From Acidimicrobiales bacterium (GTDB taxonomy: Bacteria; Actinomycetota; Acidimicrobiia; Acidimicrobiales; JAVJTC01), in assembly GCA_040219085.1 (NCBI GenBank), contig JAVJTC010000027.1, forward strand, positions 1 to 64,000: DNA of 64,000 nt, given 5' to 3'. A program made the translations under genes and the position numbers. Positions 35,702-38,823 of the stretch are shown here, piece by piece (the first letter of the stretch is position 1; each line of letters starts with the position of its first letter). The notes under the pieces are model-generated. The model did no database searches. It saw only the letters and a list, made by a program, of their open reading frames with translations, and was not told where the DNA came from.

Positions 35702-36325
35702 GTGATCGGGCTCTGGGTGACCGGGGCTGCGGCGGTGTGGCTCGTGACGGCGACGCTGGCCCAGCATCGGACGCGTTTCGTGGCGAAGGCCGCCGCGTCA
35801 GCGGGGTTCGTGCTGGTCGTCGCTCTCGATCCGCTCGATGACACCACCAGGGCGGCACTCATCGCCCTGGGCCTCGCGCTCGGCGCAGTGGGCGATCTCG
35901 CACTCATGGGACGCGGTGAGGGTTGGTTTCTGGCGGGGCTCGGCGCGTTTCTCGCCGGCCACGTCGCCTATGCCGTCGCGTTCGGCTACGACCAGGGCGC
36001 AGCACCGGCCCGGGTGGCTGGAGCATCTGTCGCCGTGGTGCTCGCCGTCGTCGTCGGGCGTTGGCTGCGCCCCCGCCTGCACGGCCCGTTCCGCGTGGCC
36101 GTACCCGTCTACATCGTCGTCATCTGCGTGATGGTCGCCCTCGCGATCGGCGCGTCGTCGTCGCATCCCGCCGCGGCCGTCGGCGCCGCGCTGTTCGCGG
36201 CTTCGGACCTCTTCGTGGCCCGTGAGCGTTTCGTCGAGCCGGCCCGGTGGAACCCCGCTGTCGGTCTGCCCCTCTACTACGCGGGGCAGGTGCTCATCGC
36301 GGTCTCGGCGGTTGCGTGGTCCTGA
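35702..36325 (+). CDS. YhhN/lysoplasmalogenase-family membrane protein
   Basis: A 207-residue protein with about seven or eight hydrophobic helices. Conserved polar positions of the TMEM86/YhhN family are present: A-K-A-A-A-S-A-G-F, G-A-V-G-D-L-A-L-M (catalytic-type Asp), G-A-F-L-A-G-H-V-A-Y and A-A-S-D-L-F-V-A-R-E-R-F. GTG 35702 is the first start of the frame. The family hydrolyses lysoplasmalogens in animals; the bacterial role is unclear. Confidence 0.85.
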   Translation: MIGLWVTGAAAVWLVTATLAQHRTRFVAKAAASAGFVLVVALDPLDDTTRAALIALGLALGAVGDLALMGRGEGWFLAGLGAFLAGHVAYAVAFGYDQGAAPARVAGASVAVVLAVVVGRWLRPRLHGPFRVAVPVYIVVICVMVALAIGASSSHPAAAVGAALFAASDLFVARERFVEPARWNPAVGLPLYYAGQVLIAVSAVAWS

Positions 36326-36340
36326 CCCGGGCCGACGGGG

Positions 36341-37462
36341 TCACATCGTGGACGGGTAGTACTCGCCGAGGTCGAGGGAGCCGATGTCGGAGATGAAGTC
36401 CGATTCGAACGGCCAGGCCCCCTCCCCGGGCAGCGGGGTCTGTGCGAAGCGGCCCCATGTGCCCCCCACCCGCTCGTGGCCGACGAGCGACCATGCCTGA
36501 CGCTTGTAGGTCCAGTTCTCCGGTTGGAGGCGGTGGCACTCGTTGAAGTGGTGGATGGCCCGCTCCCGGTCGATCGCCCAGAGATGGTTCGCCAGCTCGA
36601 AGTGGGCCGCGGCCGCGGAGACCTCCGGGGGGCGGGGTCGTGATCGGGCGACGACCTCCTCGGGCGTCAGTCGGAACTCGCTGGCGGCACCGTTGGCAAC
36701 CCAGTCCCGTATCGCGTCGGGATAGGACGCGCGGTCCTGCCCGGTGTAGATGAGCTGGAGGATCTCCTCACGCGAGGCTCCCTGTGCGCCGGTGGCAGCG
36801 GCCTCGCGGGCCAACCGGTCGCCGACGAACTCAGCGAAACCCTCGGGGTGTGCGGGTGGCCCGGCCCATCCGGACTCGGGTGGGCGCACGATGACCCCGC
36901 CCTCGTCGATCCAGATCACACTCGGGATGTTGACGACACCGAACAGCGCGTCCAGGCGGTGGGTGGTGTCGATGAGCGACGGGTGCTCGGGGGCCGCTGC
37001 CTCGATGTGGGGGCGGGCCGCCGCGGCCCCCTCGAGGGTGAGGGCGACGGTGACGACCTCGAGGCCGTGGGGATGGAGTTCGCTGCGCAGTGCCTGCCAC
37101 CCGGGCAGGTCGAAGGCGCAACCTCAGTAGGGCGCCCAGGCGACCAGCAGCACCTTCTGTCCCCGCAACGAGGACAGGGCGAAGTGAGTGCCGTCGAGGT
37201 CGGGCAGGACGAGGTCGGGGGCCTGGGCGGAGCCGAGGGCCCGGCCCCCCACGGTGTCAGGCCCGAGTGCCCACAGCCCCGCCTGCTCGTCATGGATCAG
37301 GGCCATGCCGAGCCGGGCCGCCACGTCGGGGAGGTCGAAGTCGCCGTCGGCGCCGCCGAGCGGCACGCATATCTCCGCGCGGCACGCCCCACGGGGCTCG
37401 ACCTTCCAACCGGTGCCCGCCGCGAACGCTGCGGCATCGATCTCCAGATCTTCGAGCAACAT
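36341..37462 (-). CDS. Thioredoxin-fold selenoprotein (UGA-encoded Sec at residue 113)
   Basis: One frame of 374 codons is interrupted only by TGA at 37124-37126. The first part (residues 1-112) includes E-P-R-G-A-C-R-A-E-I-C-V-P-L and a TlpA/ResA-like start, L-V-L-P-D-L-D-G-T-H-F-A-L-S-S-L-R-G. Then KVLLVAWAPY-[TGA]-GCAFDLPGWQ: in Cys-type relatives the family motif here is W-A-x-x-C-G-C, so the TGA sits exactly at the first active-site Cys. The thioredoxin fold then continues, with the cis-Pro in G-V-V-N-I-P-S-V-I-W-I-D-E and a C-terminal helical domain. A hairpin fitting a SECIS begins 3 nt after the TGA. It would be a Sec-Gly-Cys redox protein. A gene finder will report two pieces. Confidence 0.85.
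37083..37123 (-). promoter_or_regulatory. Bacterial SECIS element (selenocysteine insertion hairpin)
   Basis: On the mRNA, two bases (GG) follow the UGA; then UUGCGC (37121-37116) pairs with GCGCAG (37088-37083, one U-G). An internal loop CUUCGA/CACU leads to CCUGCC (37109-37104) pairing with GGCAGG (37098-37093), capped by CGGGU. The apical loop starts 21 nt after the UGA, inside the 16-37 nt range reported for bacterial SECIS, and a G lies in its first two bases. Confidence 0.75.
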
Positions 37463-37531
37463 CGTCGATCCCCCCGGTCACGTCGTGCGGACAAGCTAGT
37501 GCGGTTCCCCGTCGGACCGCGGGGTCAGGCC

Positions 37532-38137
37532 TCAGGTGACCTCTTCGAGCCTGGCCGTGGTGATGTCGTAGACGAAGCCGCGGATGTTGTCCTTGTAAGG
37601 GATGAACGCACTCAGCGTCAGCCTGGTCATGGACTGGCGGACGTCGGTGGCCGCATTGGTGAACGACTCGAGCGCCCACGGCGGCTTGATCCCCAACTCG
37701 GCCTCCAGACCGGCCTTGAACTCGTCCTCGGAGACCAGCTGGAGCCCGCAGTCGGTGTGGTGCACCAACACGATCGCGCGAGTGCCGAGGTGGCGCTGGG
37801 ACAAGGTCAGGGAGCGGATCACGTCGTCGGTTATCACCCCGCCCGCGTTGCGGATGATGTGGGCGTCGCCGTTGGCGAGGCCGAGCAGTCTGAAGATGTC
37901 CAGCCGTGAGTCCATACAGGTCACGACGGCCAGCCGGCGCCGCGGGTGGACGTCGAGTCCGGTGTCGTCGAAAGCGTCGGCGAAGGCCTTGTTCGCGGCG
38001 AGGAGATCGGAGATGTCGACTGGATCGTGGGTTTCGATGATCGGGATGATCGCGCGTCCCGTACGGGGGCGGAAACATCCCTGCGATAAGGGTCCGGCGT
38101 CGCGTCGTCGGGCCGCGTACTCTCGTGACGTGTTCAC
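37532..38137 (-). CDS. Beta-carbonic anhydrase (Rv1284-type)
   Basis: A 201-residue beta-class enzyme: L-A-V-V-T-C-M-D-S-R-L-D (zinc Cys with the Asp/Arg dyad), H-I-I-R-N-A-G-G-V-I-T-D-D-V-I-R-S-L, then V-L-V-H-H-T-D-C-G (zinc His and Cys) and V-R-Q-S-M-T-R-L near the end. The spacing and D-D-V-I-R-S-L match mycobacterial Rv1284. It interconverts CO2 and bicarbonate. GTG 38137 is a plausible start; the true one may be shorter, since the first 30 residues are not conserved. Divergent from the PhoU-like gene. Confidence 0.88.
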   Translation of the reverse strand: MNTSREYAARRRDAGPLSQGCFRPRTGRAIIPIIETHDPVDISDLLAANKAFADAFDDTGLDVHPRRRLAVVTCMDSRLDIFRLLGLANGDAHIIRNAGGVITDDVIRSLTLSQRHLGTRAIVLVHHTDCGLQLVSEDEFKAGLEAELGIKPPWALESFTNAATDVRQSMTRLTLSAFIPYKDNIRGFVYDITTARLEEVT

Positions 38138-38166
38138 GAACGGGCCATGGTTGAGCGGGGCGACGG

Positions 38167-38823
38167 GTGAGTGAGTCGCGTCACCGCTTCCGAGAGGACC
38201 TCGACGAGGTCTCGCTGCGTTGTGGTGATCTCGCCGCGGGCATCGCTGGTCACCTGCGGAAACTCGCAGAATGGGGTGTTCCGGACGAAGCTCTCGTCGA
38301 GGCACTCAGGGCGGCGTCCGCCCGCACCATCGAGAGCACCGAAGACCTGGAGCAGATGTGCGCCTCGCTGGTGCTGCGCGAGCAGCCCGTCGCGGGCGAC
38401 CTACGGATGGTCCTCGCTGTCCTGCGTCTGGTGAACAACATCGAACGCAGCGCCCGCCTGCTCGAGCACACGGCCGAGGCGCTCATCACCATCAGCAGCG
38501 TCGACGCTCCGGCACCGGTGGTGGACGCCGTAGCTGAGCTACGTGACCGCGCCGTGTCGCTCTTCGAGTTCGCAGTCACGGCCTTTCGTTCCGGCGACGT
38601 GGACCTCGCCGAAGCCATCCGCCGCGGCGACGACGCCGTGGATACGGCCGCGATCGAGCTGCGGCGCGTCGCGAACGAGCACTGGGCGGGCGCGGTCTCG
38701 CCGGCGGAGGTGGACGCAATCATGGCGACGGGGTTGGTCGGCCGGTACCTCGAGCGCATCGGCGACCATGCGACGGTGTTGGGTTCCGAGGCGATCTACG
38801 TGAGAACGGGAGACAGGGGATGA
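38167..38823 (+). CDS. PhoU-domain protein
   Basis: A 218-residue helical protein. Two PhoU-like three-helix repeats carry REQPVAGDLRMVLAVLRLVN with N-I-E-R-S-A-R-L-L and, in the second, V-G-R-Y-L-E-R-I-G-D-H-A-T-V-L-G. E/D-R-x-G/A-D-H-A and R-D-L-R are the PhoU metal-site patterns. GTG 38167 lies 29 nt after the divergent carbonic anhydrase start. ATGA couples it to glpD. It may regulate phosphate transport or, from context, phosphoglycerol metabolism. No pst genes are visible. Confidence 0.8.
   Translation: MSESRHRFREDLDEVSLRCGDLAAGIAGHLRKLAEWGVPDEALVEALRAASARTIESTEDLEQMCASLVLREQPVAGDLRMVLAVLRLVNNIERSARLLEHTAEALITISSVDAPAPVVDAVAELRDRAVSLFEFAVTAFRSGDVDLAEAIRRGDDAVDTAAIELRRVANEHWAGAVSPAEVDAIMATGLVGRYLERIGDHATVLGSEAIYVRTGDRG

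What the first reader, a model, noticed from the sequence alone, without database searches (positions are those of the whole stretch)
36341..37462. Thioredoxin-fold selenoprotein that gene callers split in two
One continuous reading frame is broken only by TGA at the exact place of the first active-site Cys in W-A-P-Y-[TGA]-G-C, and it continues to a full thioredoxin fold with cis-Pro and a C-terminal domain. A hairpin of two 6-bp stems with apical loop CGGGU begins 3 nt after the TGA. The loop distance (21 nt) fits bacterial SECIS rules. A random nonsense mutation would not fall on the redox Cys with a SECIS behind it.
Basis: partly seen in the sequence, partly recalled or inferred. Interest (0 to 1): 0.92.

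Follow-up and report, generated by a model that had tools for sequence, protein, structure and literature searches.

The report
Known bacterial redox selenoprotein, correctly spotted
The gene very probably reads a UGA "stop" as the amino acid selenocysteine at the active site of a thioredoxin-like enzyme, but it belongs to a selenoprotein family that NCBI has already catalogued, so it is a good catch rather than something new.

Summary
On the minus strand, 37462..36341 is one 373-residue frame interrupted only by TGA at codon 113 (37126-37124), within WAPY-U-GC. The protein matches NCBIfam NF041054 "ResA-like WAxxUGC motif-containing protein" end to end at 453 bits (cut-off 300). That family is named for selenocysteine at this position.

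The same genome holds selA, selB, selC (tRNA-Sec, anticodon TCA) and selD. selD has its own in-frame TGA, and so does a formate dehydrogenase gene. Of 46 readable related loci, 43 have TGA at this codon and 3 have Cys. In 247 genomes of the class, all 27 with the TGA form have selA; in the two with the Cys form none was found.

The hairpin alone is weak evidence: 70% of TGAs in this GC-rich window pass the bacterial SECIS rules. Comparison rescues it: its 6-bp upper stem is the stretch with the least synonymous change in the whole gene. The predicted structure is a confident ResA-type thioredoxin domain with an N-terminal domain holding an invariant C-x4-C and a helical, TPR-like C-terminal part.

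Verdict: a genuine selenoprotein gene, a new member of a known kind, of low novelty. Substrate and redox partner are unknown.

The parts
36341..37462 (-). WAxxUGC_long (NF041054) selenoprotein gene, 373 aa, ATG start at 37462, final stop TGA 36341-36343
   Evidence: translation; NF041054 453 bits vs cut-off 300, residues 1-371
37124..37126 (-). in-frame UGA codon 113, decoded as selenocysteine (inferred)
   Evidence: TGA at the same codon in 43 of 46 readable related loci, Cys in the other 3
37118..37138 (-). active-site motif W-A-P-Y-U-G-C (residues 109-115)
37093..37109 (-). SECIS upper stem-loop: CCUGCC (37109-37104), loop CGGGU (37103-37099), GGCAGG (37098-37093)
   Evidence: least synonymous change of 365 windows in the gene
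37084..37120 (-). whole predicted hairpin including the lower stem UGCGC/GCGCA; lower stem not conserved in relatives
37253..37462 (-). N-terminal domain (about residues 1-70) with invariant C27-x4-C32
   Evidence: alignment A1; model pLDDT mostly above 90
36887..37225 (-). ResA/TlpA-type redoxin domain (residues 80-192), cis-Pro candidate P180
   Evidence: PF00578 and PF08534 above cut-off; Foldseek to ResA, E 5e-11, TM 0.77 of the target
36467..36730 (-). C-terminal helical region with a TPR-like repeat (about residues 245-332)
   Evidence: TPR_2 in 24 of 28 members, not in this one at the threshold; TPR chains in the PDB profile search; model helices
37470..37475 (-). GGGGGG, a possible ribosome-binding site 7 nt before the ATG
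   Evidence: read from the sequence; not tested

Best explanation
The gene encodes a ResA-like thioredoxin-fold selenoprotein. SelB, carrying Sec-tRNA-Sec, is recruited by the stem-loop just downstream of the UGA, and selenocysteine is inserted at codon 113, the first residue of a U-G-C redox centre, where Cys homologues have Cys. The Sec selenolate most likely makes the nucleophilic attack in a thiol/disulfide (or peroxide) exchange and is resolved by the nearby Cys115 or, possibly, by the invariant C27/C32 pair of the N-terminal domain. Shown here: the reading frame, the family, the conserved UGA, the synonymous constraint on the hairpin, the complete Sec machinery and the predicted fold. 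Inferred: actual Sec insertion, the catalytic cycle, the resolving residue, the substrate and the partner.
For: NF041054 WAxxUGC_long equivalog match, 453 bits against cut-off 300, over residues 1-371. TGA in 44 of 47 readable loci including this one, always at this codon; Cys in L033, L035, L067. selC 64.9 bits, above cut-off, ARAGORN tRNA-SeC tca; selB 283.8 bits and selA 382.8 bits adjacent on C42; selD 341.5 bits with its own TGA in GAGUACK; formate dehydrogenase alpha-like gene with one in-frame TGA. All 27 class genomes with the long TGA form have selA; none was found in the 2 with the long Cys form; long and sister forms together 61/2 against 1/11, Fisher p = 2e-10, not corrected for shared ancestry. 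The lowest observed/expected synonymous change of 365 eight-codon windows falls on the SECIS upper stem, 0.40 against median 0.94. AlphaFold model pLDDT 91.8, pTM 0.91, ResA the top structural match.
Against: The hairpin by itself is no more stable than shuffles and its rule-based match is common in this GC-rich window. Base-pair changes in the stem are few, so covariation proper is weak; one Cys member (L067) still has the hairpin. The window comes from a draft assembly of 45 contigs, and no expression or protein data exist here.
Confidence: 0.97

Rival explanations
1. Pseudogene: a nonsense mutation or sequencing error in an ordinary Cys redoxin.
For: A single in-frame TGA in a draft assembly could in principle be an error.
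Against: The same TGA at the same codon in 43 related loci from many genomes, with the frame conserved on both sides; selA present in all 27 class genomes with the long TGA form.
Confidence: 0.01
2. Programmed truncation or readthrough with another amino acid: the UGA is recoded without selenium, or the product is two separate polypeptides.
For: Nothing here observes the protein; the standard ORFs on either side are open.
Against: Complete Sec machinery, Sec/Cys exchange at the exact codon that tracks selA presence, and a constrained SECIS-like stem. The split products would have no intact active site.
Confidence: 0.02

Closest known systems
NCBIfam NF041054 WAxxUGC_long (ResA-like WAxxUGC motif-containing protein)
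   Same: Full-length match above the equivalog cut-off; same motif and TGA position
   Different: Nothing essential: this member has WAPY rather than WASW before the U, as do its nearest relatives, and small length differences
ResA (thiol-disulfide oxidoreductase; NF002854, PDB 1st9/2h1b)
   Same: The redoxin domain and fold (45 bits; Foldseek E 5e-11, 28% identity)
   Different: ResA has a CxxC centre with Cys and lacks the N-terminal C-x4-C domain and the TPR-like tail (from the matched ranges); score far below its cut-off of 170
UGC-containing TlpA disulfide reductase selenoprotein listed in the 2026 review of prokaryotic selenoproteins (PMC13188914)
   Same: TlpA/ResA-like fold and a UGC motif
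   Different: The review gives only cd02966 and an accession; whether it is the same family could not be tested here, and the review's main text does not mention NF041054

Membership tests
NF041054 WAxxUGC_long | whole-protein score above the curated equivalog cut-off (300 bits) | tested here: met
   453.4 bits, residues 1-371 to profile 1-351 of 354
NF041054 WAxxUGC_long | WAxxUGC motif with in-frame UGA at the U | tested here: met
   WAPYUGC, TGA at 37124-37126
bacterial selenoprotein genes | bSECIS downstream of the UGA: loop 3-9 nt with G in its first two positions, upper stem 4-16 bp, spacing 16-37 nt, MFE at or below -7.5 kcal/mol (rules as given in PMC13188914) | tested here: met
   loop CGGGU, 6 bp, 20 nt, -18 kcal/mol; the rules are permissive in this window
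bacterial selenoprotein genes | selA, selB, selC and selD in the genome | tested here: met
bacterial selenoprotein genes | Cys homologues with Cys at the Sec position | tested here: met
   L033, L035, L067
bacterial selenoprotein genes | Sec detected in the protein | not testable with these tools
   needs 75Se labelling or mass spectrometry
ResA (NF002854) | score above the subfamily cut-off (170 bits) | tested here: not met
   45.2 bits; it may work like a ResA domain but is not filed as ResA

The most novel reading that the evidence does not exclude
A three-part selenoenzyme in which the Sec of the ResA-like domain exchanges electrons with the invariant N-terminal C27-x4-C32 dithiol while the TPR-like tail docks a partner protein: a self-contained redox relay that has not been characterised.
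Probability: 0.25. Interest if true: 0.4.

Novelty: new member of a known kind. Interest (0 to 1): 0.17.

Why it matters
It confirms that a selenoprotein can be recognised from raw sequence, and it adds a well-supported member to a catalogued family for which I found no characterised function. The family gives a clear natural case of Sec/Cys exchange: within one genus (g86), genomes with selA keep UGA and genomes in which no selA was found carry Cys. For the wider field this is ordinary.

Tried and rejected
Rfam scan of the region: only chance matches and no SECIS family hit. Energy z-score of the hairpin: not significant. Paper searches for the family name and accession: no papers in the held library. 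Conserved gene neighbourhood: none found among 18 related loci, several of them on short contigs; the apparently recurring neighbour ORFs are antisense frames over the gene itself in GC-rich DNA. Pseudogene and sequencing-error readings were rejected because the TGA is conserved.

Full report
WHAT IS THERE. The minus-strand frame 37462..36341 reads as 373 residues with a single internal TGA at codon 113 and a TGA stop at the end. A GGGGGG lies 7 nt before the ATG.

WHICH FAMILY. The read-through protein matches NCBIfam NF041054, WAxxUGC_long, "ResA-like WAxxUGC motif-containing protein", an equivalog model, over residues 1-371 at 453 bits against a cut-off of 300. Pfam sees AhpC-TSA and Redoxin at residues 80-192, above both cut-offs. 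A family named for U at this position already exists, so the find is a member of a known selenoprotein family. No paper naming the accession was found in the held library, and a 2026 review of prokaryotic selenoproteins (PMC13188914) does not mention it in its main text, although it lists a UGC-containing TlpA-like selenoprotein.

SELENIUM MACHINERY. In the window's own genome: selC (64.9 bits, above cut-off; ARAGORN tRNA-SeC, anticodon tca), selB (283.8 bits) and selA (382.8 bits) side by side on contig 42, and selD (341.5 bits), which itself carries TGA in GAGUACK. A formate dehydrogenase alpha-like gene also carries one in-frame TGA (619 bits, below the model's cut-off of 666). So the genome probably makes at least three selenoproteins.

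COMPARISON. One genome-contig scan gave 19 related loci and a survey of 247 genomes of the class gave 29 genomes with the family above cut-off. Of 47 loci with a readable motif (the window's own gene included), 44 have TGA at exactly this codon and 3 have Cys (L033, L035 and Patulibacter minatonensis L067). A few loci from the two sources are near-identical, so these are not 47 independent cases; 41 remain after removing those over 90% identical. In the class, 27 of 27 genomes with the long TGA form have selA, while none was found in the 2 with the long Cys form; those two belong to the same genus as two TGA-form genomes. With the lower-scoring sister forms added, TGA: 61 genomes with and 2 without selA; Cys (or no stop): 1 with and 11 without (Fisher p = 2e-10). 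The two TGA-form genomes without selA are about 70 and 79% complete. Shared ancestry is not corrected for in this test, and for the sister forms 'no stop inside' was taken from the table without reading each codon.

THE SECIS. The RNA folds into an upper 6-bp stem CCUGCC/GGCAGG with loop CGGGU, 20 nt from the UGA, over a weaker lower stem. It meets the published bSECIS rules as summarised in PMC13188914. Alone this means little: energy z = -0.49, and 70% of the window's 1470 TGA triplets pass the rules, 4.7% a strict version. The comparative test is stronger. In a codon alignment of 39 TGA members, each at most 90% identical to the others, observed/expected synonymous change has its lowest value of all 365 eight-codon windows exactly over the upper stem (0.40, median 0.94): the Leu codon is CTG in 38 of 39, and Gln is CAG in all 38 that have Gln. 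Two of the three Cys members have an altered stem or loop; L067 keeps it.

STRUCTURE AND MECHANISM. An AlphaFold2 model from 28 family members has pLDDT 91.8 and pTM 0.91 (residue 113 modelled as Cys). Its best PDB matches are ResA structures (E 5e-11, TM 0.77 of the target). Upstream of the redoxin domain is a small domain with C27 and C32 invariant in all 28 aligned members and also present in the three sister proteins read. Downstream are helices; TPR_2 is found in 24 of 28 members, not in this one at the threshold. The most likely chemistry is thiol/disulfide-type exchange with Sec113 as nucleophile and Cys115 or the C27/C32 pair as resolving thiol. This step is inference; no substrate or partner is known, and no conserved neighbour was found.

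VERDICT. The gene is a sound new member of an already catalogued family, with low surprise.

Noticed in passing
L018 (G000:C17:51915-52877), L070 (G000:C4:90985-92853): Two more probable selenoprotein genes in the same genome: selD with in-frame TGA in GAGUACK, and a formate dehydrogenase alpha-like gene with one in-frame TGA.
   Followed up: partly
L077, L078, L079 and about 45 class genomes: A sister group of UGC-motif selenoproteins scores mostly 115-266 bits, below the NF041054 cut-off of 300; the three I scanned have NF041054 as best NCBIfam match and no model of their own, so such genes may be left split by annotation. They share the N-terminal C-x4-C but differ in the C-terminal part.
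   Followed up: partly
window 37367-37384 (-), residues C27 and C32: C-x4-C pair in the N-terminal domain is invariant across the aligned family and kept in sister proteins; role unknown (resolving dithiol or metal site).
   Followed up: partly
L033, L035 (genus g86): Sec/Cys exchange within one genus: Cys at the UGA codon in two genomes where no selA was found, while two genomes of the same genus have UGA and selA.
   Followed up: yes
window 36848-37909 (+): A 353-codon open frame antisense to the selenoprotein gene; similar antisense frames recur in relatives and look like a GC-rich shadow, not a gene.
   Followed up: partly
window 37532-38305 (-) and 35702-36325 (+): Neighbours are a carbonic anhydrase (Pro_CA) and a YhhN-family protein; neither was found beside the gene in relatives.
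   Followed up: yes
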